From positions 1 through 30,936 of IMG/VR virus record IMGVR_UViG_3300027704_000097: 30,936 bases of DNA; one strand, written 5' to 3'. Source of the stretch: a virus. Shown piece after piece: positions 1,611 to 21,793 of this stretch. A model generated the notes under the pieces. It was not told where the DNA came from, ran no database searches, and saw only the letters and a list, made by a program, of their open reading frames with translations. The number at the start of each line of letters is the position of its first letter. Within the stretch, counting starts at the first letter, position 1. The translations under genes were made by a program, and so were the position numbers.

Positions 1611-1647
1611 AGGCTAAAAGTTATAACTTTACGCTATACATAATACT

Positions 1648-1676
1648 AAAGCCGGTCATAACGATCGGCTTTTTTT
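1648..1676 (+). terminator. Rho-independent terminator after nrdA, at the convergent gene junction
   Basis: AGCCGGTC (1650-1657) pairs with GATCGGCT (1663-1670), giving 8 bp with one G-U wobble around a 5-base ATAAC loop. Two further A-T pairs extend the stem, and a T-run follows (1670-1676). It lies 37 bases after the nrdA stop. On the minus strand the same hairpin is followed only by a weak TTTAGTATT, so it may also slow transcription from the virion operon, less efficiently. Confidence 0.88.
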
Positions 1677-2080: not shown

Positions 2081-2084
2081 ATAA

Positions 2085-2333: not shown

Positions 2334-2335
2334 AA

Positions 2336-2782
2336 TTAACAAATATCATCTACGATAGTTACCTCAACACTATCAGCATCAGACATTTTTTGATATAATC
2401 TCTTAAATGCTGGTCCTGAGGTAGTTAAGTTGTTATCATTATTAAACCTATTAGACTTAATAGAATCACCTACCAACAAACAACCATCAGTATGATCGTC
2501 ATCGTTACCTATATGAATATAGACGTATTGAAAATTAGGTACATCCTGTAACATAAAGTGAAAATCAAACCAAGGATATTTTTTACGATACTTCTCAGTT
2601 AATCCACTAAGCACTTCACGCTTTTCTACCTTGTAAATACCTGCCGGTATACGTGTTTCACCTTTTATTTTATCGGTACGATATTCATCCTCTAGCGTAA
2701 AGCATTCAAACACTCCATCAGCAAGTAATATTCCTAATGTCGAGTCTGCTCCTGAGCTAAATCTTTTTAGTTCTAGTTTCAT
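2336..2782 (-). CDS. DUF5675 family protein, possible cell-wall-active lysis protein
   Basis: The 148-aa product matches the DUF5675 pattern: an N-terminal beta region (MKLELKRF), a FTLEDEYR strand, a RIPAGIY turn, then HFMLQDVPNF and YVYIHIGNDDDHTDGCLLVG near residues 87-105. His90 followed by a Gly-Cys pair (Gly100-Cys101) resembles the HG ... GC spacing of L,D-transpeptidase active sites. An acyl-enzyme cysteine is therefore conceivable; this is my inference and not an established function. There is no signal peptide. It starts inside an ATGA overlap with the membrane-anchored coiled-coil gene upstream. No other endolysin is recognisable here, so this gene and its neighbour are the best lysis candidates. 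The family call is fairly secure, the activity is not. Confidence 0.8.
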   Translation of the reverse strand: MKLELKRFSSGADSTLGILLADGVFECFTLEDEYRTDKIKGETRIPAGIYKVEKREVLSGLTEKYRKKYPWFDFHFMLQDVPNFQYVYIHIGNDDDHTDGCLLVGDSIKSNRFNNDNNLTTSGPAFKRLYQKMSDADSVEVTIVDDIC

Positions 2783-3096
2783 CTGTCTTTCTTTCTAGCT
2801 AATTTATCTGTCATTTTTTCAATATGCTTTTGCATCTCTTTAACTTCTTCTTCAAGATCACTAATGTGCTCTTTAGTCCAGTCGTTCTTGAGATCATATT
2901 CTCTTCTATCTATAGATGCAGGCGGTAATAGCTTTGCTTCATCTATATCCATTTGCAACTTAACATACATGCTACCTAACGTAAAAACTGCTGCCACTAT
3001 CATACCGATAGTCTTCAATGTTAAGTGAAAATCAGGTTTACCATCTCCATCAACGTCAACCCCCATATTTGTACCTCCTCCTAATTCTTTTGCCAT
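2779..3096 (-). CDS. Membrane-anchored coiled-coil protein, holin- or spanin-like
   Basis: The 105-aa product has a short N-terminal region with a calcium-loop-like DVDGDGKPD (residues 14-22), one hydrophobic segment TIGMIVAAVFTLGSMYV (about 29-45), and a charged C-terminal helix (about 70-105) rich in Glu, Lys and heptad hydrophobics, likely a coiled coil. One membrane span plus a coiled coil resembles inner-membrane spanins and some holin or chaperone proteins. The DUF5675 gene follows with an ATGA overlap, consistent with a lysis pair. Two starts are possible: ATG at 3096, or ATG at 3066, which is preceded by AGGAGGAGGT. I kept 3096 because the other genes here do not use such sites and these bases also encode LGGGT. 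Confidence 0.72.
   Translation of the reverse strand: MAKELGGGTNMGVDVDGDGKPDFHLTLKTIGMIVAAVFTLGSMYVKLQMDIDEAKLLPPASIDRREYDLKNDWTKEHISDLEEEVKEMQKHIEKMTDKLARKKDR
3073..3082 (-). promoter_or_regulatory. Shine-Dalgarno-like AGGAGGAGGT, could set an internal start at 3066
   Basis: AGGAGGAGGT lies 6 bases upstream of an in-frame ATG at 3066. It is the only strong match to the anti-SD sequence near a start that I found in the window. It also encodes Gly codons of the longer product, so it may be coincidental. If used, the protein would be 95 aa and start MGVDVDGDGKP. Confidence 0.35.
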
Positions 3097-3100
3097 ATTT

Positions 3101-3106
3101 ATTATA
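3101..3106 (-). promoter_or_regulatory. Possible -10 element (TATAAT) ahead of the lysis/small-gene cassette
   Basis: A perfect TATAAT lies in the 58-base AT-rich gap between the giant virion gene and the membrane protein gene. A transcript starting about 7 bases downstream would begin near the ATG at 3096 and would carry the SD-like site as its leader, favouring the 3066 start. I see no convincing -35 element, and such hexamers are common by chance in AT-rich DNA. Confidence 0.18.
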
Positions 3107-3154
3107 GTTGTGTCTTATATTATTATTACTTGTTTTAATTATTTATTAAGCTCT

Positions 3155-6100
3155 CTAGTTCTTTTGTGTCTTTTTTCTATTCGCAGCTCGTTTTTTCTCT
3201 ATATATTCTATTGAATTTTTATATTCTATCTCCTCAACAGCTGATCTTTTATTTGTTTTAGAGTTTTTCTTTCTAGTTGCAGCGGATTTTTTATAACCAG
3301 CTTCTCTTCTTTCGTCTTGAGCTCTTTCTTTTATTAAAACACCATCTGAGTTTTTAACTCCAAGATCATATGTACCCCATCCAAACAATAAGGCTAACTT
3401 CTGCCAAGCTTTTACAGAATTATCTAACACATAGGTTAAGTTAGAAACTTTTTTAACAGCTCTATCTAATGGTATATTAGTAAAAACGCTAGTAGCAAGT
3501 CCACCAATCATGTAAGCAGGGTTATCAAATGTGTTGCTAGCACCTTTGAATCCAAAGCTTTCTTTTTTACCAGTTTTTGTTGGATTTAAAGTACCAGGGT
3601 AAAAACCTCTTTCTTTTATTAAATCTTTATTGTATTTTATTGTTTGTTTTATTTGATATGCTTTTCTAAACTTAGATCCAATAGATGGTGCTACGTTAGC
3701 TATAGCTATACCTACATATGCATAATCTATACCATAATCTTTACTCTCTTGTCTGTATACTTCAAATGCTGTATTCTTAACCATAGCGGCTATTGCTCCA
3801 TGATAGCCAGATCCTTTTAATATAGTATCTACCATACTATTTATTACTCTTATTTCTTTCTTTTCAACTTCTTCCTCATCATCAAATGACATGGCAAACA
3901 AAGCACTAGATAGTGAGTTAAATATAAAGTTTTGAGCAAAACCGTAATAAACTATTTTAGAAACGTTTTCTGCAGGATTTCCTCTACGATTAGCTAAGTC
4001 TAATGCCGCTTTCTTCATCATTCTGTTATATTGCATGGATGTGTTTTGGAAAGACAAAACAAACCTACTAAACTTATTTGCTTGTTGCTCAGATACCATC
4101 GAGGGATCAGAAGACTGCTGATGCTTATCAGTTAACTCAGAAAAATCCTCAAAAGCTTTTGCTTCAGCTTCTTTCAGATCCCACCCTTGTTTTTGATAAG
4201 TTTTAGTTCTATTTCTATAGAAAGTAGCTCCACCAGCAGAAATAGCTAAACCATCAGCAGCTTGTGTAGGTGTAAAACCAATTTTAAGTAGGAATCTTAA
4301 AGCTTTCTTATAAGAATCTGTAGAACCCTCCACGCTGCTTGCCATCTCAGCTTGATTAACATCTATTTTAAATCCTTTTCTTCTTTGTTTTAGTTTGTCA
4401 GAGTTAAATAATGTTACAACATCTCTCCAATACTGTGGTTGATTAGCAAATGCTGTACCAGCTTTTAATAAATTGTTATCACTCCAGTTAACATAATTAG
4501 CTGCGGATAGTGTTTGTAATGCAGCTGATCTACTATTAAAAAACATTATAGTACCAACAGAACCATTTAAAAAGTCAGCAAAAGCATTTGCTCTAGCATC
4601 TTCAGATCCAAAATTTCGGTTAGTACCTTTTTCCATCCTAAAAAGCATGTCTTCTAATGATTGCTTAAATCTAGTACCATATATGGCTTCTATTTTATTT
4701 AGGTTTTGCTTGTTAAATATTTCCCTATAATTATCCGTAAATTCTTGTAGGAATTGTTTTCTACCTATTTTGTCTGAAATACTATTTAAATCACTAGCTA
4801 TGTTATCAACCAACCAATCCCTACCTGGTTCTATGTAACCTTTTTCTTGACCAGTAATAAGACCTAATTTTCTAGCAAACTGTTGTATTTCTCTATCTTT
4901 AGCTATAGCGAAAAAAGCATCATTTATTAATTTTCTACCTTCAGCTGTATCTGGTTCTAAACCAGTTTCATTCATATCAAAACCTCCACTTTTCCAAAGA
5001 AATATTCTTATAGCTTGATCATAAGTAAAATCAGAGTCAGGCATTTTTTTACTTAGCTTTTTAGATACCTTAGGATACTTTTTTCTTAGATCTTTGTAAT
5101 CACTTTCTATTTTCTGCTTAGCAGACTCTAGTTTTGCTATACCTCTTTTATACGGTTTGTTTAATGTTTCTTCAAAAAACTGTCCATGAAGCTCTCCTCT
5201 AGAACCCTCACCCATAAAAGCGTACATTAGACCCATGAAATCATCTGCTGAAGGAGGAACAAAGAATTTGTACTTACCTATTGTAGCACCTTTCTGTCTA
5301 GCTATAACTTCTGGTATAATCTTATTAGCTGATGCTAATTTATTTTTTTTACCCTTTGTTTCTTCTATTATACCATTAAATCTACCACTTAAATCACCAT
5401 CACTTTTAGAAAGCTCATCTTGCTTTGTTTCTTGTTTTTTTACTTCTACTATTTTAAGAGGAGGTAATTTTTCTTCACTTTCTTGTATTGCTTTAATAAC
5501 TCTTTTATCATTATACCTAGCGGCTAAATAATATCCATCAACCATCTTAGCTTTTATAGCTTTGTTATTAGCGTCTTTAGGCAAATGTGATTTAAAATAT
5601 TTACTTATGATTTTATCATATGTTTTAGGTATAATAGCAACTCTAAAATCTTCCATTATTTGATCAAACGTAGTATTATTACCGTCTTTATTTAATATAT
5701 AAAGACCAAGTATTTCTTGTATAACTTGCCTAGCGGGTTTAACATGCTCATAAATATAATCCTTATCATTATTTGAGTTTAAATTTTCAATTTGTAAATT
5801 TGGTATTGCAGCTGTTCTAACTAAACCTTCTCCGTTAGAATTAAATGTCATTAGTATCATACCAAGATCATTTTTGCTTATTTTATTTTTTTCATATAAA
5901 TCTTTTAAAGTATCAACTATTTGTCTAAATCCTTCTCTTTGATCTTCTGCTTGACGAATTCTATCTTGTTGTTGTTCGCCGAACTCAACTTCATATCGTT
6001 GCCTAAAAACAGTAGGTAATGTTGTTTCAACATCGTCTATGATTGCCGATTGCGAACCTGATTTATAAGATGCATTATCTATGAAATTTTTGAAAAAATC

Positions 6101-9100
6101 AGGTCTACCTCCTATTAAAAAATACTTTAACGAACCTTTTGCTATATCAAATCCACCTGTTTCTAAATTTAATTTAAAGCCACCTGATTTAAGTCCATAA
6201 GCTCCTTTTACTGTAGGTCCTACATATTTTAAAGCTGAATCAACACCTATTCTGTCAATTAAAAGTTTAAATGATTCTCTAGCAGATTTTATTTGTTCTT
6301 CACTTCGAAAATCTAAACTTCCTTTTTCTAAATCTAATATACCTTGAAAAGTTCTTTTAAAAGTTCTACCTAAAGTTTCTTCGTATATGTACTTTCCTAA
6401 AGTAAGTTTACTTTTGCTTTTCTCCCAAGCTTTAGCAGATTTTTCCATCTGCTCCAATATAAGATCTTCATATTCAAAGTTATAGGTTGCAAACGCTTCT
6501 TTGTATGCCTTTTTTATATCTTTTGGATTATTTAATGTTATAAAACTCTCAGAACCTTTTTTAAAATTATCGTATGTTTTTCCATACATTTGATCAGCAA
6601 TAGCTTGACTCAACATTAATTCACTTTTGCCAGCTCCAATATCAGCTATTTGCTGACTACTTCCTTCATCAGGTTTCAATTGTTCTCTAACTGTAGTGTT
6701 AGTAACTAACTTACCAAACATTATGGCTAAACCTTTAGCTGTCTGAGCTTGTGGTGATTGTATAAAAACCTTATCAGGTATGTTTCCATCAGGTAATATA
6801 CCAAGCTCTTGTCTAAACTGTTCTTTAGTAACTGGAGTTAAGTCATATATAGGTAAACCAGATGCTGTATCGATTCTATCACCTTTTTTATAAAAAGACG
6901 TTAACACATTAGTAGGCAATCCAGTAGATGTACCATATAACTTTTGAGTTACTGCTTTATCAACTACAGCACCTTTAGGAAATATCTTTACAAAATCATC
7001 AAACATTTCATCAAGATTTCTCATTGTATTCTTGAGTTCACCTTGAGTAAAATTGTTTTTAGGAATTAATTTTTTAACTGGTATCTGAAATCTTTCAGCT
7101 GTTGTTTCTGGAGATAAATCAGGTAATGATTTAAAGCTTGTTTTTTCAGAACCAAAATCAGGCATATTATTACTTATTGTTTCCGTGGCTTTGCCAGATA
7201 AACTATCATCCATCAAAGTTCTTGGATCAATTAAACCCCCAACTCTCTGTGCTTCAGCTTCAGCATCTTCTTCTGTTTGTGTAGTTTCTTCTTGAGTTGT
7301 TTGAAAGTCTAAACTTGTTTCAGCTAAAAATTCAGTATCAACTGTTGAATAACTTTGTTCAAACTTTTCCTTTAATATACCTTCAAAAAGCTTAACAGCT
7401 CTCATAGGTAATATCTTGGCTACATATGCAGCTATTGGTACAGATCCGTCATATGTTCTAAATAAATCAACTAATCCGCCTTCATCAAACTTAAGCCTAT
7501 CAGACATTTCCTGTTCGTTGTATCCAGGTACAGCTCTTCTTTTATTTACTATTTTAGATATTAAAGGGTCAAATAAACCTTCTTCAATAGCATTCCAAAC
7601 ACCTTGTGAACCTTCTTCCTTGTATATATCTTGTGCTCTTTTGGATTGTTCTTTCATCCTAGGTGTTATCTCAGATTTACTAACACCTTCTTTTACTTCA
7701 CCTTTTGATTTAGTAAATACTTCTTTATTTCCTCTAATAGCATCTAAATCTTCTTTACTTAAACTACCATCGCCTAGTTTTTTAGCAATACCACCAATAA
7801 ATTGTATTACATCTGTTTCACCTTGAAAATCTATTTTAGCTTTATCACCTCTTTTACCAATCATCATTTTATTAACTAATGATGAAAATAATCCAGTAAA
7901 ACCTCTAGATTGTTTAGATTTAAGATCTATAGTGCCATCAGCTACTCTTTCAATAAAGTTAGCAACAATCTCACTTGGTTTTCTATCAGCTGTTTGATTA
8001 CCAAATAAACCACTAAACATCTTGTCATAAGCCGCTTTGTTTGTCTCTCCGGTCCATCTAATTATAGTATCAGCTAACTCTTTCATTTGTTTAGAGTTGT
8101 TATCTATCTTTAATAATTCAGTAAAAATACCATGACCTATTTCGTGTACACCAGTTCTGGTTCTACGATTACTTACCATTTGATCTCTTATAAGAACTAC
8201 TTCATTTTTTTGATTAGGATCAGCTGTTTGTAAATTATAACCGTTAGAGTTTTTTACAACGTTTAGTTTAATTGTTGATGGTTGTCTTTTTTCTTTTTCA
8301 GCTTTTTTATTTTCTGCTTCTTGAGATTCATTTCTTCTTTTATCTTCATAAGCCTGAGCTTCCTCAGGTGTTTTAAATTCAATTACTTTAGCATTTAAAT
8401 AATCAACAGAACCTAATCCAGTTTCTATTATTAATTCTTTTGTATTAGCTATATCAGCTGTAACTTGTCTTTGTATGTATATATCAAAAGATTTCTTTTT
8501 TAAATCTTTATCACTAACTATATCTTCTGGCGATAAACCTTTATCTTCTTTTATTGCTCTTTCAGCTTCTTTTCTTATATCGTCGTATTGCTTAGGATCT
8601 GATTCTTGTAAATAATGATACTGATTGCCAAAGTCTTTTGGGTTTTTAAATAAATCAATAGCTTGTTGGTAACGATCAAATCTTTCTTTTAACGGCTTTA
8701 GCTTTTCGTTTTTAGACTGTTGACTTTGATCACTGTTTATTATTTTTTCAGCTTCAATTCTTAATGTTTCCTGTGTATCTATGGCACCAACATGAAGTTT
8801 ATAGCTTTCCTCTGATAACTTGTCCCTCATGTTACCATCTAATTCATATAGAATGTCGTCGTTTTGTTCTTTTAATTCTTTTACTTTTTTATCTAATGCT
8901 TTTTTGTCTTCTTTAAAATCAGTTCGTTCTTTTACTTTTTCACCTTTCAAAGCCGCTACTCTTTCAAAGAAAGGTATTTCAGGATGCTTACTTTTAAATT
9001 CAGCATTTAACTTACCCATCTCTGATATGTTTTTTCTGTATGTAGAGTATGAATCATAATCAGCAAACTTACTAGCTGCTGCTGCTCCAAGTACAGGTGC

Positions 9101-10903
9101 TGCAGACATGCCAAATCCAAATAAGCCTCCAGAAAAAACAGCATGACCTACATTTTCTAATACTGGTCTACCAGTTAGTAGGTTTTGAGCTATTGAAGTT
9201 AAACCCTCAGTTGAAGACTCCATAAAAGTAGGTACTACAACCCCGTTCCACGCATTTTCTTTTATGTACTTTCTAAACCCAACTTTAGCTACTTCTCTTT
9301 TTCCAGCTCTACTAAATAATGTTGCTCCTTGTTTTAATATTTTAGCTGTTGGTAAACTACCTAGTACACCTTCAGCTAATCCAAAACCAGTTCCAATTAA
9401 AAACTTTTCAGTATTACTATATTCAATATCATTAAACTTATATTTATCTTTTTTGGACATCATCTCCTCGTAATCCATGTCTGATATTTGATTACCAGCA
9501 GAAGATACACCAATAATACCTACACCAGCAACGCCTGTAGCCATCATAGTAGCTATTATAGGTGCCTGTGTACTTATTTCTTGCATTAGAAACTCACCAA
9601 AGTTACCATCTTTAAAAGCATCTTTAAACTGAACATCAGGAGCATAGTTAAATCTTTCTTTCTCCATTTCAATCCTATGCTGGATCTGAGTTCTTTTCAT
9701 CTTGTCAGCTGCTACTATACCTAGTACACCTAATCCCATACCAGCACCAGTATTAACACTGGCCTCAGCTATATAAGCTGCTCCTCCTAACACTATTCCC
9801 TTAGTGACGTTATAAGCTGAGTTTGCATTTTTACTTAAAGAATCATAATCTCTTCTTAGTAAATCAAATTCTAGTTCTAAATCAAACTTCTCTTTTAAAT
9901 TACTGTTATAATTTTCTCTGTTATTTTGATATGAATCATACATACCGCTTATAAGATTAGATTCTTTACTTACAAATTCATTAGCTATAGTATATTTGTC
10001 AACTATTGATTTTGGTACTTTTTTACCATTAAAAGTAAATTGCTCTTCACCTTCAACACCAGATCCAAATATAAAATTAGGATCATTTAAGTCTTTTTCA
10101 ATTTTTTCTTTGTATTTAAATTGTTCGGACTCTTCAAGTAAAGTTTGTCTAGATATAAAAGAATCATAATCTTTATTTACTTTTATTTGATTTTCATCAA
10201 AGTTGTAGTCATCATTTAAGGTTTTGTAATCTAACCTATTTTTACCTAAAAATTCTTTTTGTTTTTTTGGTGTTAATGATTTAATAAATTGATCTGTCTC
10301 ATACTTCTTTAAATCTACTATTTCTTGATCAGCTAATCTTCTTCTTAAAGTAGCCTCAAGTTCTTCGTCAGACGGTACCTTATTGTTTATTTCTGATAAT
10401 TCTATCTTAAGATTTTTAAGTTCTTTCTCGTAAGGTTTTTTTATTATTTTTTGATCTTGAGTGTAAACACCCATACCTAAGTATTGACCACGGTTCACTT
10501 CTTCTACTTCGTCAAAAAGAAATTGATCACTATATTTATCTTCTATTTCTTTAGTTAGTGTTTTAACATCTAAACTTTCATTAGCATTGTCTAATTGTTC
10601 ATATGTAAAATCTTGATCAACAAAATCCTTTTTAGGAACATATACACCCATACCGGCATAGCTGGGTAAAGAACTTTCTTGTTTTTTTACTTTTTGCTTT
10701 TCTTTTTCAGGCTTTTTCTCTTCTATGTTATTTGTTGCAGAATCAAAATCAGTGTCAAATTGTTTTCCTTGATCAAGTTTTATAGCCTCTGAAGTTATTT
10801 TACTTGACTTCATATAATCCTCAACACTTAACCCTTCGGATTCAGCATTAGTTTTTATTTGCTCAAAAGATATTTCAGAACCGTTTAAATAGAATTTATT
10901 CAT
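3155..10903 (-). CDS. Giant internal virion protein with zincin (HEIGH) domain, 2582 aa
   Basis: The start MNKFYLNGSEISFEQIKTNA resembles the N-terminus of very large marine phage virion proteins. Several parts are visible. A GMGVY motif occurs twice near residues 84 and 144. Four hydrophobic Gly/Ala-rich stretches lie at about 365-400, 440-470, 500-520 and 585-615. A metallopeptidase motif HEIGH falls at 920-924, with a probable third zinc ligand at Glu978 (PSEIVANF). Long charged helical regions follow, with a C-terminal part (about 2100-2480) holding more hydrophobic helices such as GFAQNFIFNSLSSALFAMSF. The tail is very basic and the stop is TAG. Size and position downstream of the tail and ejection genes suggest an internal protein ejected with DNA, perhaps forming a membrane conduit and cutting host or phage protein. 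I see no RNA polymerase DxDGD motif and no clear lysozyme domain. Confidence 0.85.
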   Translation of the reverse strand: MNKFYLNGSEISFEQIKTNAESEGLSVEDYMKSSKITSEAIKLDQGKQFDTDFDSATNNIEEKKPEKEKQKVKKQESSLPSYAGMGVYVPKKDFVDQDFTYEQLDNANESLDVKTLTKEIEDKYSDQFLFDEVEEVNRGQYLGMGVYTQDQKIIKKPYEKELKNLKIELSEINNKVPSDEELEATLRRRLADQEIVDLKKYETDQFIKSLTPKKQKEFLGKNRLDYKTLNDDYNFDENQIKVNKDYDSFISRQTLLEESEQFKYKEKIEKDLNDPNFIFGSGVEGEEQFTFNGKKVPKSIVDKYTIANEFVSKESNLISGMYDSYQNNRENYNSNLKEKFDLELEFDLLRRDYDSLSKNANSAYNVTKGIVLGGAAYIAEASVNTGAGMGLGVLGIVAADKMKRTQIQHRIEMEKERFNYAPDVQFKDAFKDGNFGEFLMQEISTQAPIIATMMATGVAGVGIIGVSSAGNQISDMDYEEMMSKKDKYKFNDIEYSNTEKFLIGTGFGLAEGVLGSLPTAKILKQGATLFSRAGKREVAKVGFRKYIKENAWNGVVVPTFMESSTEGLTSIAQNLLTGRPVLENVGHAVFSGGLFGFGMSAAPVLGAAAASKFADYDSYSTYRKNISEMGKLNAEFKSKHPEIPFFERVAALKGEKVKERTDFKEDKKALDKKVKELKEQNDDILYELDGNMRDKLSEESYKLHVGAIDTQETLRIEAEKIINSDQSQQSKNEKLKPLKERFDRYQQAIDLFKNPKDFGNQYHYLQESDPKQYDDIRKEAERAIKEDKGLSPEDIVSDKDLKKKSFDIYIQRQVTADIANTKELIIETGLGSVDYLNAKVIEFKTPEEAQAYEDKRRNESQEAENKKAEKEKRQPSTIKLNVVKNSNGYNLQTADPNQKNEVVLIRDQMVSNRRTRTGVHEIGHGIFTELLKIDNNSKQMKELADTIIRWTGETNKAAYDKMFSGLFGNQTADRKPSEIVANFIERVADGTIDLKSKQSRGFTGLFSSLVNKMMIGKRGDKAKIDFQGETDVIQFIGGIAKKLGDGSLSKEDLDAIRGNKEVFTKSKGEVKEGVSKSEITPRMKEQSKRAQDIYKEEGSQGVWNAIEEGLFDPLISKIVNKRRAVPGYNEQEMSDRLKFDEGGLVDLFRTYDGSVPIAAYVAKILPMRAVKLFEGILKEKFEQSYSTVDTEFLAETSLDFQTTQEETTQTEEDAEAEAQRVGGLIDPRTLMDDSLSGKATETISNNMPDFGSEKTSFKSLPDLSPETTAERFQIPVKKLIPKNNFTQGELKNTMRNLDEMFDDFVKIFPKGAVVDKAVTQKLYGTSTGLPTNVLTSFYKKGDRIDTASGLPIYDLTPVTKEQFRQELGILPDGNIPDKVFIQSPQAQTAKGLAIMFGKLVTNTTVREQLKPDEGSSQQIADIGAGKSELMLSQAIADQMYGKTYDNFKKGSESFITLNNPKDIKKAYKEAFATYNFEYEDLILEQMEKSAKAWEKSKSKLTLGKYIYEETLGRTFKRTFQGILDLEKGSLDFRSEEQIKSARESFKLLIDRIGVDSALKYVGPTVKGAYGLKSGGFKLNLETGGFDIAKGSLKYFLIGGRPDFFKNFIDNASYKSGSQSAIIDDVETTLPTVFRQRYEVEFGEQQQDRIRQAEDQREGFRQIVDTLKDLYEKNKISKNDLGMILMTFNSNGEGLVRTAAIPNLQIENLNSNNDKDYIYEHVKPARQVIQEILGLYILNKDGNNTTFDQIMEDFRVAIIPKTYDKIISKYFKSHLPKDANNKAIKAKMVDGYYLAARYNDKRVIKAIQESEEKLPPLKIVEVKKQETKQDELSKSDGDLSGRFNGIIEETKGKKNKLASANKIIPEVIARQKGATIGKYKFFVPPSADDFMGLMYAFMGEGSRGELHGQFFEETLNKPYKRGIAKLESAKQKIESDYKDLRKKYPKVSKKLSKKMPDSDFTYDQAIRIFLWKSGGFDMNETGLEPDTAEGRKLINDAFFAIAKDREIQQFARKLGLITGQEKGYIEPGRDWLVDNIASDLNSISDKIGRKQFLQEFTDNYREIFNKQNLNKIEAIYGTRFKQSLEDMLFRMEKGTNRNFGSEDARANAFADFLNGSVGTIMFFNSRSAALQTLSAANYVNWSDNNLLKAGTAFANQPQYWRDVVTLFNSDKLKQRRKGFKIDVNQAEMASSVEGSTDSYKKALRFLLKIGFTPTQAADGLAISAGGATFYRNRTKTYQKQGWDLKEAEAKAFEDFSELTDKHQQSSDPSMVSEQQANKFSRFVLSFQNTSMQYNRMMKKAALDLANRRGNPAENVSKIVYYGFAQNFIFNSLSSALFAMSFDDEEEVEKKEIRVINSMVDTILKGSGYHGAIAAMVKNTAFEVYRQESKDYGIDYAYVGIAIANVAPSIGSKFRKAYQIKQTIKYNKDLIKERGFYPGTLNPTKTGKKESFGFKGASNTFDNPAYMIGGLATSVFTNIPLDRAVKKVSNLTYVLDNSVKAWQKLALLFGWGTYDLGVKNSDGVLIKERAQDERREAGYKKSAATRKKNSKTNKRSAVEEIEYKNSIEYIEKKRAANRKKTQKN

Positions 10904-10915
10904 GTGTTGTTTTGA

Positions 10916-12436
10916 TTATTCTTCTCCTAAAACTTGATTAAGTGTGGCATATTTGTAAGATAATCCATTTATATTTGTTACTGGAGCAAACAATTCTTCT
11001 ATTGTATAATCACCACTTGATCTACCATCACTACCTGATAACATAAATTTTGTTACACCATTATCATCAATTTTCGTATTTACCGTGAGTTTATTATCTC
11101 CTAAGTGTTTTCTTAAGTTATTAGTTAAATTATCTTTTGATATTTCTAACATTTTATCTGATTTTGCTTTGTCAAGCATTTCACCATTAAAATCAACAGG
11201 ATACTCGTTAGGTTTAGCAAGTGTTTTTAGTATGTTTAGGTTGCTTGCAGGTTCTTGAGATTGTTTAGATAATACACTCAAAGCATTTATAACTTTCATG
11301 TCACTTTCTTCTGCTTTTGAGTATGTTTTTCCACCACCTGATGCTCTAGCAACAGCTAATCTATCTTCTTGTTCTTTTTGTTTAATAGCATTATATCTAT
11401 CTAATTTACCTTTGTGTAGTTTAACTGCCGTTTTGTATAAAAAACCATCCCCTTTATTTTCTTCACCAAACAAGTAATTAACAGCATCTGATTTAGCTTT
11501 TGTTCTAATCTCAATGTCTGAACTCTGTAATCTATTTATAAGGTCCTCGTTAGTTTCTTTTAAGTTAACACCAGGTATAGGATTGTCAGTGAACAAAGTA
11601 AGTAATTGATCAGTTCTAACTTGACCTGGCTTTTTTAGATTTTCTCTATATAGATTAAAGTCGTGTTCTAGGTCTGTAACATCTATTTCTTTTCCTAAAT
11701 CACCATCTTTTTGAAGAACATCAGTAATGCCTACAAATTTATCAGATATCTCTGTATCAGCAACCCTAGCTAGCGTTGTGTCGTAGTCATCAATAGAACT
11801 ATATTTGGCGTTTCCTTCTTCATCTGTACCATCTGCTATTACTAAAAATCCATTATCATCCCATTTAGCTTCATATTCTTCTTCTAAGAAACTATTAGTT
11901 CTATTCATTATAGTATCGTCAGGCTCGGCATCACCATTTTCAACAGTATTGAAATCCGCGTAACCGTCCTTGTCTGCTAACTCTTGTCTTGAACTCATTA
12001 TAGAATTTAAATTATCAAGACTCTCTACTGAGTTTTGCATCCCTGTTCTTATTTTTAAAAGTCCCTCTTGTGCTGATGCATATTCAGGTGAGTCAGAAGG
12101 AAATTCAGACATAATCTTAAAATGACCATTAGATTCAGATCTCCAATCTTTTGCTTTAGATAGAATCATTTCTGTTTGTTTCGTTGTCTTTGCATGTCCA
12201 GATGCTTCTACTAAATTATTACTAAACTTATCTGATGATCTTTTTTGAGCTGCACTTTGTTTTTCCCTACGTAGGTTATCTTTTTCTTCTTTAGCTCTTT
12301 GTAACTCACCTCTTTTTGATATACCAGCTGCTACCTTGTCTCCAAGGTCAGCAATTCCTTTACCAACGTTATAATTAACTTCGTTATTTTTATAAGCTTG
12401 ACTTACACTTTTTATTAATCCTACGTCTGCTGCCAT
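10916..12436 (-). CDS. Helical internal/ejection protein candidate, 506 aa
   Basis: I do not recognise a specific family. The product starts MAADVGLIKSVSQAYKNNEV and is mostly polar and helical. Residues about 45-75 are dense in Lys, Arg, Glu and Gln (ELQRAKEEKDNLRREKQSAA) and probably form a coiled coil; an acidic stretch rich in Asp and Glu follows at about 155-230. There is no signal peptide, membrane span or cysteine. It sits between the Gln-rich likely ejection protein and the giant virion protein, ending 12 bases before the latter's start. In podoviruses this slot commonly holds internal core or ejection proteins such as T7 gp15/gp16 analogues, so a similar role is inferred from position. 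It could instead be a chaperone or adaptor for the giant protein. Confidence 0.72.
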   Translation of the reverse strand: MAADVGLIKSVSQAYKNNEVNYNVGKGIADLGDKVAAGISKRGELQRAKEEKDNLRREKQSAAQKRSSDKFSNNLVEASGHAKTTKQTEMILSKAKDWRSESNGHFKIMSEFPSDSPEYASAQEGLLKIRTGMQNSVESLDNLNSIMSSRQELADKDGYADFNTVENGDAEPDDTIMNRTNSFLEEEYEAKWDDNGFLVIADGTDEEGNAKYSSIDDYDTTLARVADTEISDKFVGITDVLQKDGDLGKEIDVTDLEHDFNLYRENLKKPGQVRTDQLLTLFTDNPIPGVNLKETNEDLINRLQSSDIEIRTKAKSDAVNYLFGEENKGDGFLYKTAVKLHKGKLDRYNAIKQKEQEDRLAVARASGGGKTYSKAEESDMKVINALSVLSKQSQEPASNLNILKTLAKPNEYPVDFNGEMLDKAKSDKMLEISKDNLTNNLRKHLGDNKLTVNTKIDDNGVTKFMLSGSDGRSSGDYTIEELFAPVTNINGLSYKYATLNQVLGEE

Positions 12437-14236: not shown

Positions 14237-17200
14237 TTAAGCTGATGCTCCACTTTTTGTTACACCAAACTGTATGTTTAATGGATCTGATACAGAAGTA
14301 CCATTTGCTATAGTAGCAGCCCAAGTAAAACCTAATTTAGAAGCAGGTCCACCTTGATATTTACCGTTAGATAAAGATGTCCAAGTACTTGTATAATCTG
14401 GGTTTGTTACTTTTAAACCAAATATTTCTAATACAGTTATTTTAGGTGAATTAAGAGAACCAATTAATGATGAAGTAGCTGTTATAACTATCTGGTTTTG
14501 TCCTCCTTGCGTGTTATTATTACCTTCTTTAAGTTCGTTCCCATCTAGCTCAGCTATGATGTATCCAGTACCACGATACGTAATAGAACTACCGCTATCA
14601 ACTTCAATTCTATTGTGACCACTTAGTAGTGCAGCTTCTAACACATCACCAGTAACTAAGGTTTTAATTGCTTTTTTAGTTGTTCCCGTTGGTACAAAAA
14701 CTGTAGCTACACCCTGTCTTTTATGTGATAATAATTTATCTAAATCTAACTCTAAAGTTAAGTCTGCTAAACCATACTTAGATATTTCTAGATCACCAGT
14801 AATAGAATATGTATTACCTCTGGTAGTACCAGTAATTGTTCCGTTTGTATTTTTAAGATTAAAATCCCAATTTTCTGGTGTTGTTTTATTAAATAAGAAA
14901 ACTGTACCAGTTGTTATTGTACTAGAACCTGTAATAGCTGTACCAAGTGTTATTACAGTTCTATCTGTATTTATACCAGCAACTGTATTTGTATGAGAAC
15001 TTACTATAGTACCATCTGAATTGTGTATATTATAATCAATACTACTACCAACATAAACAGCACCAGGTATTGTAGTTGTTATAGTGCGTGTAAAGGTTAA
15101 AACAGTATCATTACTTAATGATTCATTTTCTGATAAAGTTAGTGTTGTTTCATCTGTTTCAGATAAATCAACGGCTGTAACTGTAGGAGTACCAGATATT
15201 CCAGTCCCTGAAATAACATCACCTATTATTATATCACCAACTTCACCATCAACTACTAAAGTACTAACACCACTAATTGCACCTTTTACATTAGCAGTAG
15301 AAGTTGCTGGAGCCGTAAAGCTTAAACTAGTACCAGTAGTTATGCTAGCTGTACCAGTATAAGTTAAAGTTGCTTTTTGATATTTAAAATCATCAGTACC
15401 TACTTCTTCTAATTCGCTTAATATAAAGCTTTGAGCATCTTGACCTGAAACATCAATAGCTTGCATTATCTTGCTTATGTTAGCTATATACTTGCTTGAT
15501 CCACTAATAGGTTCGTGTTCTGAGTATGAACTAATTATATCGTAAGTAGCAGAAGTAGTTACAGCTGAAAATGTTAAATCAACATCGTTAGATATACTTT
15601 GAGCAGAAGATAAAACCAAATTATTTTGATTAGTCAAAGAAGCTACAGTAACATTAAAATCAACACCACTACCAGTAACTCTGTCTCCAACAACAATTGT
15701 TCCAGAATTAGTATCTACCACTAAAGCTGTTGTGTTGCTTATTGCGTTATTAACTTTAGCTGTAGCAGTTCCAGTTCTTGTACTTGTAGTTGCTATGCTA
15801 TCACCTGGAAAAGCATACACTTGATCAGGTATAGACTTTTTTAACTTTAACTTAACTTTAACATCTGGCATTTGTTTTATAACAATATCCCCAAAGACAT
15901 TTGCATTAACTTTAGAAAAAGTTATTACTGTTCCTGATGGTATTTGACTTATAGAAGCTGGTTGTACCCTAGGAGCTGTAATAGACGTACCTTGAGTATC
16001 AGAAGTTTGACCAGGTATAACAAACCTATACGTATTAAAGCCAGCTGAAGAACCAGTATTTATATTAAATATTTGTTCTTTTAAATTTATTTCCGTACCA
16101 CTGTTACCTGTAGTTGAAACTATAAATCTTCTACCACCAGGCATTCCGTCCCATGTTACATCTGTACTCCAATCGCCAGCATCTACTACTGGAGGAGCAC
16201 TAGCAAATGTTAACTTAAATCCACTAGCCCAAGTTGCTGACTGTGTAGATAATGGTAAAAAATTAGCTTTAGTAGATGTGTGATCTGCAATATTAGCACC
16301 TGGAAACTCATTACCAGCTATAGTACCATTTGCATTAAACTTTGTTCTTTTTATTATAGTAAGTGGTTGATTATTAAACACTTGACCACTATTAGCTGAA
16401 TCATTATATTGGTTTATACCTGGATCTATTCTATAGTAAATATATTTTTCGTTAGAGTTTGTTAGCGCTGGTATAACTTCATCAAAATCATAAACACCGC
16501 TTGCTGGAATATAGTGTTGTCCAACATAAGGATGATCTTGCCAAGCATAAGTTGTTCCATGCCAAAATGAAATATTATTACCTACGCTATTGGTAGATGT
16601 ACCATAATTTGTTATTACAGTATAACTTGCTGCATCAACTGTTTTTGTTTGCTCTAACTCTCTTTTAGTTATATTAAAAGTAGCACCAGGTGTTCCAAAT
16701 ATTTTAAAGCCTCTAGTTTCACCTGAAGACAATATAGTTCTTTTAGAAAAGTTGACACCAGTTATAGATGTTGGTACTGCAACTATTTCTCTAATAGCTT
16801 TAGCAACAAATGTTATTTTATCACCAATAGGATTTTTAGATCCAAAAGTATATCTAACGGTAAAAGTAACTACAGCATCCTTGTCTGATGCACTCCAATT
16901 ATTTGTTATTCTATACATGTTATCACCGCCGCCGCCATTGCTATACACAACAGTTGCTACAGGTGCTTCATCAAATTCAAAACCTGAATCTGAAGTAAAT
17001 GCTATAGTAAATAATGTAGATTCAACATCAACAACACCTCCCGTGTAAGTATTTATACTAGTTCTACTTAAAGTAGATGTGTTTTCCTCAAATGTTTCAT
17101 GCGTTAAACCCACGCTGTATGTTGTAGTTGCAAGTGCACCTGAGTGAGATACGTTAACTGTATTACTTATATCACTAGTAACAGAAGTATCAGTAGATGC

Positions 17201-20200
17201 TAAAGAGCATGTTACATTTGCTCCGCTTTGAGAAAAAGTACAACCAGATCCACTAAAATTACTATGAACTAAAGTATAACCCGTAAGTGGTGTTATGGTA
17301 AATGAAGTAGTATTAGATGCATTAGATGTGTTTATATTTTGTACAAAAGACACGGGGTCAGATATAGTAATTTTACCAGTTAAATCACCATCTACCGTAG
17401 CTAAGGTTTTAGTTATGGTTACTTGAGTTCTTGCTGTAGCGCCTGCTATGGAAGCATAAGTACCAACACCCTGCACGGTAAATTCTTTTTCATCTAAATT
17501 ATCTATAGATGTCGTATCACCTGATATAAAGTTACTCCATAATCCTTCTTTTTCTACAAACTCCTTAACTACACCTGTTTGTTTCTCTGTTTTTAAAGAG
17601 TTAGCATACCAACCTGTTTTAGCTAATGTTTGACTAGAGCCGCTGTACGTGTACTTTCTAGAATCACTTCCTTCATAGTTTAATGTTTTAAACTGTTTAA
17701 TAGAAGAAGGTGCTTCATTCATTAATACGTTTACTGATGATTGATAACCAGAACCATAAAAGTTGTTTCTAATAGCATTGTTATGAGAGTATAATAAACC
17801 TTGATTAAAAGTGTAATATAAACCATTCAATGAAGTTCCAAACTCAGGTAGAAAAGACCTAAACGATGTCCATCCATCAACTCTTTCATCAAAAGATATA
17901 GTGTAGTTGTTTAGAGTTAAATTGTAACACTTTTTATTTTCATCAAACGTGCCTAAAAAGCCATTGGACAGCGGTATATTGTCACTAAACCAATCACCCA
18001 TACCCTTTTCAGATATATTAGTTATACCGTCTCTAGATAGCCTTAAAACGCATGATCTAGCCCTGTCTAAAAAATACATTCTATAACCATAAGAACATAT
18101 TGCTTCAGGAAACTTACTACAACCATACTCACCTAGGTAGGGTATTGTTTGACCTAACACATTATTGCTAGCAGTTAATTGAGGATTACCATCAGCATTG
18201 TATAATGCATCTTTATTTGCTAATATTCTAACAACTTTGTCTTCACAAAAAGTAACTAAATCTGTGTCTCTAGCTACTAGCCTCTGTATACTACCATATT
18301 CTGGATTTAACTCTTTAGTTATAGCCTCTGCTTGTATAAATTGATTTAAATCATTAACGCCACTTATAGAATTTATTATACCAGAAAATATTAAACCACT
18401 TTTTTTGTGATCCTCTTTGTATCTAGTATCTATTGTTGAAGAAACAGTTGGCCCTTTGTCTATGTATATGGCATTAAAATCATCTTGTATTCTATTTGAT
18501 TCTACTCCGTTGCCAAAAGAGAAACAATTAAACCAGTCAATGCCATTACTAAATCCATGTACATTATTACTTTGACTTAAAGTTATACTTGTTGTTGTAT
18601 TAACGCCTGTGACCTCAATATCCTTATAATATAACTCATCACTAGACCACACCCTATATGTATATCCAGTGTTAATAGTGCTGTTTATGGTGCCTGACCA
18701 AGATATAGACGTTGTCTTGTCTCCATTAGAATCAACAGAGTTGTTTATTCCTGTTACTACCTGTTTAGCCAAATGCTCTGTGTTTTGTATTTTCATACCA
18801 GGCTTTAGTATAAATAACTGATTTGAAGCCTCATAAAACAAATCTAAATCAACAGATGTAATTGGTTCTGTTTCAAATATAGCTGGATTGTTAGATGTTA
18901 GATTATCGTTTTCAAAATCTATTTCTCTTTTTACTATAGCAATCTCTGTTATTATACCATTAGAAGATGTAGAGCCTGAAACTAAAAAATTATCAAAATA
19001 ACCTCCTCCGTCTTTTATGCTTTCAAGTTGAACATTGTATCTTCTTCTTTTACCTGATAATTTCTTTTTACTACTTTTAGCATCAGATCGATACGACGCA
19101 ATTACATTGCAGCTAGTTATTTTATATATACCACCTGTAAAACCACCTGAGTTTGAGAATTGTATGAGAGTACCTGCAGTATTTATTTTAGATAAAAAGT
19201 CGCTTAATTGATTTTCTAAGTGATGTTCTATAGTATTTTTTCCAGTATCAACTCCTGATAAAACAAAAGAAAATGTTTTATTATCTAATGCAGGGTGTTC
19301 GTTATCTAATATTCTAAGATCTAAAAACTCGTTATGTTCAGCTTTTGAATCTTTCCAAGATATTCCAGAGTTTTCACCGTTATCTTCTGTGAAATCATTT
19401 GTTGAATCTAAAGATATATTTTGTTTTTCTTTTACACTATATTTTACTTTGTTTAAAGAAAATGCATCAATAACGTTTTCATCTAAAATAGTATCTCTGT
19501 TTACTTTTACAAAAAATCTTCCTGAAAACTCAGATTTATAAGATGAAGTCTCTTGATATATATTAACTTTAAAATATTCATTTGCTTCAAGATTTGTTGA
19601 AGATAATATAGATGATTCTTTTGATTCAAAACCATCTTCTAGATTTACTTCATAAACTATAGTAGCATTACTGCTTCCATTTGTCTCTCCATTTATGCCA
19701 CCACTTTCTATCTTATATTTATCTGTAGTACCTATTTCTTTACCAGAACTATCATAAGATGTTATACTAACATAACCTAAAGAATTAAAAGATCTAGCAA
19801 ACTCAGGATTTTCAACATCTGTTGGTCCTCTAAATTTAAAGTAAGAAGAGTTTACAGCGGGTCTGTTAATTGGATCTGTTAATACATATGCTCTATAGCT
19901 TGATTTTAAATTAATGTCAACCGTTAGTGACCTAGGTGCCTCATTCTGTATATCTAATATTCTATACTTTGCTTCTTCCTTAACAAAATTATTAGAATCG
20001 TGTTTCTTTTTTAGTGTAATGTATCTTTCCTCTTGTATTTTATTTCTTTCAGATGATGGAAATGATAACCAAACACTATCATCTTTAGCTATATAAAATC
20101 TATCTAAAGCAAGATTATAATATTCATTTGAAGTTTCTTTTACAAAGTACTTGTAGTGAGTCGCCCAGTCTGGAGGTATACTATCTATTCTTGCTGAAAG

Positions 20201-21793
20201 AGAGTTTATAGAATCAGCTTGAATCTTATTTATGATAGCAGATGATTTTTTACTAGAAAAAACTGGTGTTTCTCTTTGAAAGTAGTCAGAATACACAACA
20301 CCTATTTGGTATGTTCTTTCTGATTTAATTGATTTTTCACCAACACCTATTGCAGATGTTCTATTTTTAACTTTAGAAGTAACAGAAATTTCAGGTATAT
20401 TGTTATCCTGTATATTGTAGCCTTGAATATAATTAGCATAAACTAATCTATTACCAATAGTCTCTTGAGCTTTAGCTTTTAATGGGACATTGTCCCAAGG
20501 TCTTAGCAGTTGATTAGAAGGTATTACTAAACCTAGTGTTTCAGATTCAACAGTATAACTTGTTGATGTATCGGTTATGGTATGTGTTACATAAATTAAA
20601 TTATTATTAGATTCTTTGAGTAATACTTCGATTTTTTCTACATCAATTGGTTTTTCAAAACCACTTATAACTATTGACTTAACAGTATTCAACATACCAT
20701 CGTTAAAACCATCATCTGATTTGTATTCAAATGTTCCAGGTAAAAATGCTACGTCTGAAAATGGTGAAAAAGTAGAATACTCACCATCGTTATATTTCCA
20801 TCTATAAGCAAATCTTACCAACTTCTTCTCAAACAATGGCTTGCCCTCGTCTAATAAACATGTAAACAACAGCGCATTATCAGGTATATCATTAGGCTTT
20901 GTTAATAGAGAAGCTCTAACGCTATTAGCCTCGTTTAATAGTTCTGTTATCTTTATTGTTAAATTATATGTTGTTGTTGTTTTATCTGAATTATCTTGAG
21001 TTGTAGTTAATGTTATTATATCATCCTTTAAAAAATTAGGTGTAGGTGCAAAACCTATAGTAAAATCTTCTCCAATACTTATGCTTGAAAAGTTATAAGA
21101 AACTATAACACTATTATTGCTAGCACTAGTTCCTACCCCAGATCTCTTAGATGAACTTAAAGTTAGTGTAGGTGCATTTCTTGGTGCTAGTTTTATTGTT
21201 GTTACATTCTCATTTTTAAAGTTGCTAGAAGCAGCTCTTTGAGTGGCATTCATCACGGTGCCATTGTATTTCGTAGTGGTAGCAAAGTCTACAGAGCCTG
21301 ATTTAAACTTCTCTATATTAATTTTTTTAGGATCAGTTTTATTATCTGTCCAAGCTAATAATCCCTCTATTACGTTTATACCTGTAACTAAATAATCCTT
21401 ACTAAAGTTTAATATGCTACCCATGTCCACTAATACAGGCAGAACCTCTTTAGTAACGTCATCATACTCTGCTATACAACTAGCTTCATCGGATGCAATA
21501 ACCCAATATATTTTGTTGTTTTCGTTGTCCACAACATGACCTATACACTCAGCATTGGTTAAGTTAGATATGAAGCTAGAACTCCAGTTAGATACTGTGT
21601 TTGTGCCAACATTTAATTTTTTACCGTTGATCAAAGTGTTACCTAGACTGTTTTGAATAGAACCTATGTCAGAACCTTCAGAAGTAACTATTTCTATGTT
21701 CTGCGCATCTCTATACTCACCATTAGGTATTAATCTTTCATCAAGATCTTTATTCATCCGACCTGCTCGGAAGTGATGTTTTATCTCTGGCAT
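14237..21793 (-). CDS. Tail nozzle protein (P22 gp10/muzzle-like) with long adhesin-like C-terminus, 2518 aa
   Basis: The N-terminus (KDLDERLIPNGEYRDAQNIE, then GSIQNSLGNT) resembles the opening of P22 gp10-type nozzle and crAss-like muzzle proteins, which form the tail tip below the portal. Further family-like blocks are RFAYRWKYNDGEYSTFSPFS (about 330-350), SNEYYNLALDRFYIAKDDSV (about 560-580), and a propeller-like part around 1170-1380 including LRLSRDGITNISEKGMGDWF. The core seems to end near residue 1440 (EFTVQGVG). Beyond it lie roughly 1080 residues rich in Ser, Thr, Asn and Gly, with Ig-like strand patterns, a segment holding many aromatics (about 1710-1850), and two tandem copies of a 64-68-residue module (2012-2075 and 2167-2234). 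The extension probably carries receptor-binding functions, an inference. It starts 3 bases after the 374-aa gene. Confidence 0.85.
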   Translation of the reverse strand: MPEIKHHFRAGRMNKDLDERLIPNGEYRDAQNIEIVTSEGSDIGSIQNSLGNTLINGKKLNVGTNTVSNWSSSFISNLTNAECIGHVVDNENNKIYWVIASDEASCIAEYDDVTKEVLPVLVDMGSILNFSKDYLVTGINVIEGLLAWTDNKTDPKKINIEKFKSGSVDFATTTKYNGTVMNATQRAASSNFKNENVTTIKLAPRNAPTLTLSSSKRSGVGTSASNNSVIVSYNFSSISIGEDFTIGFAPTPNFLKDDIITLTTTQDNSDKTTTTYNLTIKITELLNEANSVRASLLTKPNDIPDNALLFTCLLDEGKPLFEKKLVRFAYRWKYNDGEYSTFSPFSDVAFLPGTFEYKSDDGFNDGMLNTVKSIVISGFEKPIDVEKIEVLLKESNNNLIYVTHTITDTSTSYTVESETLGLVIPSNQLLRPWDNVPLKAKAQETIGNRLVYANYIQGYNIQDNNIPEISVTSKVKNRTSAIGVGEKSIKSERTYQIGVVYSDYFQRETPVFSSKKSSAIINKIQADSINSLSARIDSIPPDWATHYKYFVKETSNEYYNLALDRFYIAKDDSVWLSFPSSERNKIQEERYITLKKKHDSNNFVKEEAKYRILDIQNEAPRSLTVDINLKSSYRAYVLTDPINRPAVNSSYFKFRGPTDVENPEFARSFNSLGYVSITSYDSSGKEIGTTDKYKIESGGINGETNGSSNATIVYEVNLEDGFESKESSILSSTNLEANEYFKVNIYQETSSYKSEFSGRFFVKVNRDTILDENVIDAFSLNKVKYSVKEKQNISLDSTNDFTEDNGENSGISWKDSKAEHNEFLDLRILDNEHPALDNKTFSFVLSGVDTGKNTIEHHLENQLSDFLSKINTAGTLIQFSNSGGFTGGIYKITSCNVIASYRSDAKSSKKKLSGKRRRYNVQLESIKDGGGYFDNFLVSGSTSSNGIITEIAIVKREIDFENDNLTSNNPAIFETEPITSVDLDLFYEASNQLFILKPGMKIQNTEHLAKQVVTGINNSVDSNGDKTTSISWSGTINSTINTGYTYRVWSSDELYYKDIEVTGVNTTTSITLSQSNNVHGFSNGIDWFNCFSFGNGVESNRIQDDFNAIYIDKGPTVSSTIDTRYKEDHKKSGLIFSGIINSISGVNDLNQFIQAEAITKELNPEYGSIQRLVARDTDLVTFCEDKVVRILANKDALYNADGNPQLTASNNVLGQTIPYLGEYGCSKFPEAICSYGYRMYFLDRARSCVLRLSRDGITNISEKGMGDWFSDNIPLSNGFLGTFDENKKCYNLTLNNYTISFDERVDGWTSFRSFLPEFGTSLNGLYYTFNQGLLYSHNNAIRNNFYGSGYQSSVNVLMNEAPSSIKQFKTLNYEGSDSRKYTYSGSSQTLAKTGWYANSLKTEKQTGVVKEFVEKEGLWSNFISGDTTSIDNLDEKEFTVQGVGTYASIAGATARTQVTITKTLATVDGDLTGKITISDPVSFVQNINTSNASNTTSFTITPLTGYTLVHSNFSGSGCTFSQSGANVTCSLASTDTSVTSDISNTVNVSHSGALATTTYSVGLTHETFEENTSTLSRTSINTYTGGVVDVESTLFTIAFTSDSGFEFDEAPVATVVYSNGGGGDNMYRITNNWSASDKDAVVTFTVRYTFGSKNPIGDKITFVAKAIREIVAVPTSITGVNFSKRTILSSGETRGFKIFGTPGATFNITKRELEQTKTVDAASYTVITNYGTSTNSVGNNISFWHGTTYAWQDHPYVGQHYIPASGVYDFDEVIPALTNSNEKYIYYRIDPGINQYNDSANSGQVFNNQPLTIIKRTKFNANGTIAGNEFPGANIADHTSTKANFLPLSTQSATWASGFKLTFASAPPVVDAGDWSTDVTWDGMPGGRRFIVSTTGNSGTEINLKEQIFNINTGSSAGFNTYRFVIPGQTSDTQGTSITAPRVQPASISQIPSGTVITFSKVNANVFGDIVIKQMPDVKVKLKLKKSIPDQVYAFPGDSIATTSTRTGTATAKVNNAISNTTALVVDTNSGTIVVGDRVTGSGVDFNVTVASLTNQNNLVLSSAQSISNDVDLTFSAVTTSATYDIISSYSEHEPISGSSKYIANISKIMQAIDVSGQDAQSFILSELEEVGTDDFKYQKATLTYTGTASITTGTSLSFTAPATSTANVKGAISGVSTLVVDGEVGDIIIGDVISGTGISGTPTVTAVDLSETDETTLTLSENESLSNDTVLTFTRTITTTIPGAVYVGSSIDYNIHNSDGTIVSSHTNTVAGINTDRTVITLGTAITGSSTITTGTVFLFNKTTPENWDFNLKNTNGTITGTTRGNTYSITGDLEISKYGLADLTLELDLDKLLSHKRQGVATVFVPTGTTKKAIKTLVTGDVLEAALLSGHNRIEVDSGSSITYRGTGYIIAELDGNELKEGNNNTQGGQNQIVITATSSLIGSLNSPKITVLEIFGLKVTNPDYTSTWTSLSNGKYQGGPASKLGFTWAATIANGTSVSDPLNIQFGVTKSGASA
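15092..15295 (-). repeat. Repeat module copy 2 in the tail nozzle protein
   Basis: Residues 2167-2234 of the 2518-aa protein: begins ANVKGAISGVSTLVVDGEVG, includes IIIGDVISGTGI, and ends ESLSNDTVLTF. It aligns by eye with the copy at 15569-15760: both have x-V-x-x-A-I-S ... LVVD ... G-D-x-(V/I)-(S/T)-G-(S/T)-G, a T-x-L-x-L-S strand and SND-x-x-LTF. It is 4 residues longer. Confidence 0.8.
15569..15760 (-). repeat. Repeat module copy 1 in the tail nozzle protein
   Basis: Residues 2012-2075: begins AKVNNAISNTTALVVDTNSG, includes IVVGDRVTGSGV and ends QSISNDVDLTF. About 90 residues separate it from copy 2. Diverged tandem beta modules of this sort are common in phage fibres and bacterial adhesins, where copy number often varies. 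Confidence 0.8.

What the first reader, a model, noticed from the sequence alone, without database searches (positions are those of the whole stretch)
3155..10903. Giant 2582-aa virion protein with an embedded zinc-peptidase motif
HEIGH at residues 920-924 with a likely third ligand Glu978 is the zincin pattern (HExxH plus a distant Glu), set inside a huge protein with several membrane-prone segments. A virion-carried protease delivered with DNA could cut host defence or envelope proteins, or process phage proteins. I know of no described function for such a domain in this phage type.
Basis: partly seen in the sequence, partly recalled or inferred. Interest (0 to 1): 0.65.

Follow-up and report, generated by a model that had tools for sequence, protein, structure and literature searches.

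The report
Swappable zinc-protease in giant phage protein
A marine phage related to those infecting flavobacteria encodes a giant protein, probably carried in the virus particle, with a real zinc-protease domain whose four key residues never change in relatives even though the rest of the domain diverges beyond recognition or is swapped wholesale, so the enzyme activity, whose target is unknown, is clearly under selection.

Summary
The ORF at 3155-10903 (minus strand, 2582 aa) has HEIGH at 920-924 and Glu978. All 71 full-length homologous giants from IMG/VR carry exactly one HExxH (0.55 expected in total by composition). In an alignment of 69 domains at roughly 15% identity, the only invariant columns are H920, E921, H924 and E978. 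AlphaFold2 gives a confident three-strand domain with HExxH and Glu978 on two separate helices. Its best solved match is the anthrax lethal factor gluzincin (Z 6.6, not decisive); ligand distances could not be measured. The all-helical C-terminus matches phage polyvalent proteins by fold, and the gene is the last large one of the structural module, syntenic with an MS-detected virion protein. It is therefore best read as an ejected polyvalent protein with an active zincin, the kind predicted by Iyer et al. 2017 and seen in N4 vRNAP. What is new is a zincin clade outside Pfam's MPTase-PolyVal, and a cassette (residues about 46-1256) replaced wholesale between phages 73-94% identical in the C-terminus while the incoming piece always brings another zincin. 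Whether it cuts the giant itself after ejection (slightly favoured) or a host target is open.

The parts
3155..10903 (-). Giant 2582-aa ORF, last large gene of the structural module
   Evidence: synteny with the last structural giant of phi18:3, phi38:1, elemoC, ctfjg026
7544..8626 (-). Zincin (gluzincin-like) metallopeptidase domain, residues 760-1120
   Evidence: AlphaFold2 pLDDT 82.3, pTM 0.76; best PDB rows are anthrax lethal factor, Z 6.6; alignment A3
8132..8146 (-). HEIGH motif, residues 920-924: two His as zinc ligands, Glu921 as general base (roles inferred)
7970..7972 (-). Glu978, predicted third zinc ligand
   Evidence: invariant in 69/69, also when the downstream part is aligned without the HExxH anchor
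9074..9763 (-). Region holding three membrane-prone segments (residues 381-399, 449-467, 588-610)
   Evidence: hydropathy; residues 400-684 match phi38:1 gp101 at E 7e-14 and residues 434-812 match the elemoC giant at E 2e-9
7136..10767 (-). Exchangeable cassette 1 (residues about 46-1256), including the membrane-prone region and the zincin
   Evidence: no DNA match to L145/L146, while the flanks match at 87-92% (window vs L146); protein BLAST
6621..7135 (-). Conserved middle block retained across cassette swaps (residues 1257-1428)
   Evidence: 86-87% nucleotide identity to L145/L146
5385..6620 (-). Variable slot 2 (residues about 1429-1840); in 57 of the giants searched a HAD-like DxDxT domain is found N-terminal of the C-terminal domain, in some a zeta-toxin/AAA_33 kinase; no HAD in the window protein
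3224..5413 (-). Conserved all-helical C-terminal domain (residues 1831-2560)
   Evidence: A2, A4; AlphaFold2 pLDDT 80.7; fold matches to phage polyvalent proteins
14237..21793 (-). Crassvirus-type muzzle protein (context)
   Evidence: Pfam PF25729, E 2.5e-8

Best explanation
The 2582-aa protein is a phage-type polyvalent protein that is packaged in the virion and ejected with the DNA (inferred). It contains a catalytically competent gluzincin-type zinc metallopeptidase at residues about 760-1120, with His920, His924 and Glu978 as zinc ligands and Glu921 as base (residue conservation and predicted fold shown; metal binding and cleavage inferred). Most likely working order, all inferred: the N-terminal hydrophobic segments sit in or on the host inner membrane; the zincin refolds in the host; it then cuts the giant chain, or partner ejection proteins, in cis, releasing the C-terminal half (slot 2 plus helical domain) to the cytoplasm. 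Probabilities: real zincin 0.93; active peptidase 0.85; carried in the virion 0.85; main substrate is self or other ejection proteins about 0.5; main substrate is a host protein about 0.35.
For: Motif: 71/71 full-length giants have exactly one HExxH against 0.55 expected in total. The two members with short C-terminal ORFs that are not cut by a contig end have the HExxH in the ORF just upstream. Four invariant columns only, the catalytic ones, in an alignment at about 15% identity. Glu978 is 100% conserved when aligned without the motif, against at most 80% for any column in shuffled controls. Fold: three strands, HExxH helix, then Glu helix, pLDDT 82, as Iyer describes for MPTases; anthrax-toxin chains, nearly all lethal factor, fill the top 12 rows, Z 5.1-6.6. 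Virion and ejection: the C-terminal domain matches phage proteins named PolyVal ART or large polyvalent protein by fold at E 7e-6 to 2e-4; last giant in the structural operon; phi18:3 gp123 at that place was found by MS/MS; hydrophobic N-terminal region. For self-processing: the zincin is universal while the other enzyme domain is patchy (HAD in 57); it lies between the membrane-prone region and the C-terminal modules; Iyer infers autoprocessing for P1 DdrB.
Against: No cleavage, zinc or virion data exist for this phage. N4 vRNAP, with the same kind of domain, is packaged unprocessed. Some cultured relatives (phi38:1, phi18:3, phi46:3, Panino) lack the domain, so it is not indispensable to the wider lineage. 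Very fast divergence and wholesale swapping would fit a host-facing target as well or better.
Confidence: 0.55

Rival explanations
1. The zincin is an injected effector protease that cuts a host protein (a defence or envelope factor), and its sequence diversifies to follow hosts.
For: The domain falls to 10-20% identity between most members and the window while the C-terminus stays at 45-55%. It is replaced wholesale between phages with 73-94% identical C-termini, yet the new piece always keeps HExxH and Glu. Iyer et al. list effector action as an alternative.
Against: Universal presence in this clade fits a core step better than a host-specific weapon. A swapped cassette that carries its own cleavage sites would also fit self-cleavage. 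No target is known.
Confidence: 0.35
2. The zincin acts before packaging, as a maturation protease trimming the giant or its neighbours during assembly (P1 DdrB model).
For: Iyer et al. infer this for P1 DdrB. No other HExxH-bearing ORF of 100 aa or more occurs in the window.
Against: N4 vRNAP is packaged unprocessed. Phages without the domain have comparable structural modules.
Confidence: 0.2
3. The HExxH is not a peptidase: a structural metal site or a dead remnant.
For: Only sequence and predicted structure are available. For N4 the paper read reports the HExxH domain without describing an activity and notes that the motif also occurs in other enzymes.
Against: The catalytic base Glu921 is as invariant as the ligands. 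A structural site needs the ligands but not the base, and a remnant would decay at this divergence.
Confidence: 0.07

Closest known systems
Zincin-like MPTase domains of phage polyvalent proteins (Iyer et al. 2017, PMC5512222)
   Same: Giant multidomain protein encoded by late virion genes; HExxH helix followed by a Glu helix; combined with other enzymes (in relatives) and a helical polyvalent-type C-terminus; relation to lethal factor
   Different: Not recognised by Pfam MPTase-PolyVal; very fast divergence and cassette exchange; Flavobacterium, Cellulophaga and crAss phages are not named in that paper's main text
N4 virion RNA polymerase gp50 (Schitoviridae; PMC12633501)
   Same: Giant protein delivered with DNA; membrane-prone N-terminus; HExxH zincin-like C1 domain plus a large helical C2 domain
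   Different: No RNA polymerase domain detected here; zincin lies in the first half, not directly before the C-terminal helical domain
phi18:3 gp123 / phi38:1 gp101 / elemoC gp20 giant structural proteins
   Same: Same genomic position; detectable homology of phi38:1 and elemoC to the N-terminal half (E 7e-14, 2e-9); elemoC has HEIFH and its domain is hit by the zincin profile at E 1e-13
   Different: phi38:1, phi18:3 and phi46:3 lack the HExxH domain; the window's C-terminal domain is not detectable in them by sequence
Crassvirus cargo proteins gp45-gp50 (PMC10172136)
   Same: Large proteins encoded next to the muzzle gene and stored in the virion for ejection through the tail
   Different: No peptidase described there; no sequence homology tested to gp45-gp50

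Membership tests
Zincin (gluzincin) metallopeptidase | HExxH on a helix | tested here: met
   HEIGH 920-924; predicted helix at model residues 158-171; 71/71 homologues
Zincin (gluzincin) metallopeptidase | Distal Glu on the following conserved helix as third ligand | tested here: met
   Glu978 100% invariant; helix at model residues 217-230; anchor-free alignment
Zincin (gluzincin) metallopeptidase | Fold match to a solved gluzincin | tested here: inconclusive
   Lethal factor tops the list, Z 6.6 over 180 residues, but under Z 8 and with no Foldseek E below 0.001; M48 profile match E 0.033 at the HExxH
Zincin (gluzincin) metallopeptidase | Zinc binding and peptide-bond cleavage | not testable with these tools
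Phage polyvalent protein | Very large multidomain protein among late virion genes | tested here: met
   2582 aa; relatives up to 4058 aa; adjacent to structural genes
Phage polyvalent protein | Several unrelated enzyme domains in one chain | tested here: inconclusive
   Met in the family (HAD in 57 giants, zeta-toxin/AAA_33 kinase in 2 of 14 scanned); in the window protein only the zincin is recognised
Phage polyvalent protein | Shared polyvalent C-terminal region | tested here: met
   By fold: 34 BFVD matches at E <= 1e-3, including proteins named PolyVal ART and Large polyvalent protein associated domain
Pfam MPTase-PolyVal (PF18818) | Sequence match to the family profile | tested here: not met
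   0 of 35 records at E <= 1
Pfam LPD38 (PF18857) | Sequence match to the family profile | tested here: inconclusive
   0 of 35 records, but the control set was silent too
N4-like virion RNA polymerase | RNA polymerase domain in the giant | tested here: not met
   No Pfam family at E <= 1 in the whole protein

The most novel reading that the evidence does not exclude
An abundant marine phage group, apparently infecting Bacteroidota, injects a protease from a swappable cassette: the cassette, with its own membrane-insertion segment, is exchanged between phages and sets which host protein is cut at entry, making it a modular virion-delivered anti-defence or entry protease.
Probability: 0.3. Interest if true: 0.75.

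Novelty: new variant of a known kind. Interest (0 to 1): 0.47.

Why it matters
Zincin domains in giant phage proteins have been predicted since 2017, and in N4 one has been seen in a structure, but their job is unknown. Here is a large natural family in which catalysis is frozen while everything around it diverges or is swapped, which argues that the domain works as an enzyme rather than as a relic. Cultured relatives that carry the domain (Flavobacterium elemo phages, Tenacibaculum Gundel_1), alongside relatives that lack it (phi38:1, phi18:3), make the open question of what these proteases cut directly testable.

Tried and rejected
Pfam and PHROG scans of the whole giant found nothing, and phmmer against PDB sequences found nothing. 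tblastn of the giant against phage records found nothing, so relatives were reached through the capsid protein and the C-terminal domain instead. The 506-aa neighbour as a bait found no relative. C-terminal domain against PDB by VIA-align: no match above Z 4.6, mostly a single long helix. Sequence profile A2 gave no convincing match in phi38:1, phi18:3, Panino or elemoC. Considered and rejected: chance motif; an RNA polymerase in the giant. Loci L158 and L173 first looked like exceptions without HExxH, but it lies in the ORF just upstream; the other seven members without it are cut by a contig end. A papers search for crAss-like phages plus zincin found none.

Full report
WHAT IS THERE. The ORF is real: 2582 codons, 3155-10903, minus strand. 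It holds a single HExxH, HEIGH at 920-924, and Glu978. By composition 0.005 such motifs are expected in this protein, which has only 12 His. Three hydrophobic segments lie upstream of the motif, at 381-399, 449-467 and 588-610.

GENOME. The window is a 30.9 kb virus record. Capsid and portal proteins are 40-54% identical at best to Flavobacterium elemo phages, Maribacter phage Panino and uncultured ctfjg026, and more distantly related to Cellulophaga phi38:1, phi18:3, phi46:3 and Tenacibaculum Gundel_1. A muzzle protein with a crassvirus C-terminal domain lies upstream of the giant. In phi18:3, phi38:1, phi46:3, elemoC and ctfjg026 the structural module also ends in giant genes. phi18:3 gp123 is annotated as structural from MS/MS. 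The window giant matches phi38:1 gp101 (E 7e-14) and elemoC gp20 (E 2e-9) over its N-terminal half. Virion location is therefore inferred, not shown.

CONSERVATION. Using the capsid gene and then the C-terminal domain as bait, 19 and then 80 IMG/VR giants were collected, with overlap. All 19 of the first set have one HExxH. Every full-length one of the second set, 71 of 71, has exactly one; 0.55 are expected in all of them together. Nine lack it: seven are cut by a contig end, and in L158 and L173 it lies in the ORF just upstream. In an alignment of 69 domains, mostly 10-25% identical to the window, the only invariant columns are H920, E921, H924 and E978. Glu978 stays 100% conserved if only the part after the HExxH is aligned, with spacings of 46 to 99 residues; composition-shuffled segments reach at most 80% in any column. 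The elemoC domain is recognised by the profile at E 1e-13, and one of the two ctfjg026 HExxH regions at E 7e-8. Gundel_1 has HEFGH in its 2483-aa giant. phi38:1, phi18:3, phi46:3 and Panino have none.

FOLD. AlphaFold2 on window residues 760-1120 with 69 sequences gives pLDDT 82.3 and pTM 0.76, with strands 79-84, 129-132 and 141-146, the HExxH helix at 158-171 and the Glu helix at 217-230. That is the core Iyer et al. describe for polyvalent MPTases. Foldseek found no PDB match below E 0.001, but its top row is anthrax lethal factor. In VIA-align, anthrax-toxin entries fill the first 12 rows; the best (lethal factor, Z 6.6, 180 residues) spans the catalytic region, while others fall on the related non-catalytic N-terminal domain. 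Z under 8 is not decisive by the tool's own note. Among viral predictions the elemoC giant ranks first. I could not measure ligand distances.

THE REST OF THE PROTEIN. Residues 1831-2560 are the most conserved block, about 45-50% identical across the family, and are predicted all-helical. By fold they match 34 viral proteins at E 1e-3 or better, including ones named PolyVal ADP-ribosyltransferase and Large polyvalent protein associated domain. N4 vRNAP also has a HExxH C1 domain and a large helical C2 domain in its C-terminal part; homology of the helical parts was not tested. A HAD-type DFDDT domain lies before the C-terminal domain in 57 of the 89 giants of this clade and not in the window. 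In L178 a zeta-toxin/AAA_33 kinase lies between HAD motif I and the rest of the HAD.

CASSETTE EXCHANGE. L144 and L145 are 94% identical over the C-terminus, yet their zincin regions cannot be aligned by BLAST. At the DNA level window and L146 match at 92% up to residue 45, not at all until residue 1257, at 87% for 1257-1428, not for 1429-1840, then at 76% to beyond the end of the gene. At the protein level weaker similarity resumes at about residue 1112. Of 40 pairs with C-termini at least 65% identical, 14 have zincin regions that BLAST cannot align. Each replaced piece still brings HExxH plus Glu. Selection thus holds the activity, not the sequence.

MECHANISM. Shown: motif, invariance, predicted fold, modular exchange. 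Inferred: zinc binding, peptidase activity, packaging, ejection, substrate. I favour cleavage of the giant chain or its partners after ejection, because the zincin is universal while the other enzyme slot is patchy, and because it sits between the membrane-prone and C-terminal parts. A host target is the main rival, favoured by divergence and swapping. Pre-packaging maturation (P1 DdrB model) is third. Iyer et al. named all three possibilities in 2017.

VERDICT. Observation confirmed; interpretation partly supported. It is a divergent member of a known kind (polyvalent-protein metallopeptidases), with a cassette-swapping pattern that I did not find described in the papers searched.

Noticed in passing
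L150, L151, L167, L169, L221 and others (giant ORFs): A HAD-family DFDDT phosphatase-like domain sits upstream of the C-terminal domain in 57 of 89 related giants, but not in the window protein.
   Followed up: partly
L178:155-12286, residues 2435-2826: A zeta-toxin/AAA_33 P-loop kinase (residues 2470-2612) appears inserted between HAD motif I (2447) and the rest of the HAD domain.
   Followed up: partly
L173:4379-12004 and L158:4162-12187: The giant is split into two ORFs (in L173 in one frame with a stop between, in L158 in two frames), the HExxH being in the first; either true gene splits or sequencing errors.
   Followed up: partly
L005 (MW202828.1) 741-12320: The ctfjg026 giant, annotated 'reticulocyte binding/rhoptry protein', carries two HExxH motifs (residues 1615 and 2500).
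   Followed up: partly
L230, L233, L234 and L226: Contigs with this phage giant are binned into MAGs named Woesearchaeota, Aliivibrio and other non-Bacteroidota taxa, probably contamination of the bins.
   Followed up: no
window 2085-2782 (-): Small genes after the giant: DUF5675 (148 aa) and DUF6321 (85 aa), no function known.
   Followed up: no
window 14237-21793 (-): The muzzle homologue is 2518 aa; the crassvirus muzzle C-terminal domain is found at residues 1341-1423, leaving more than 1000 residues after it unexplained.
   Followed up: no
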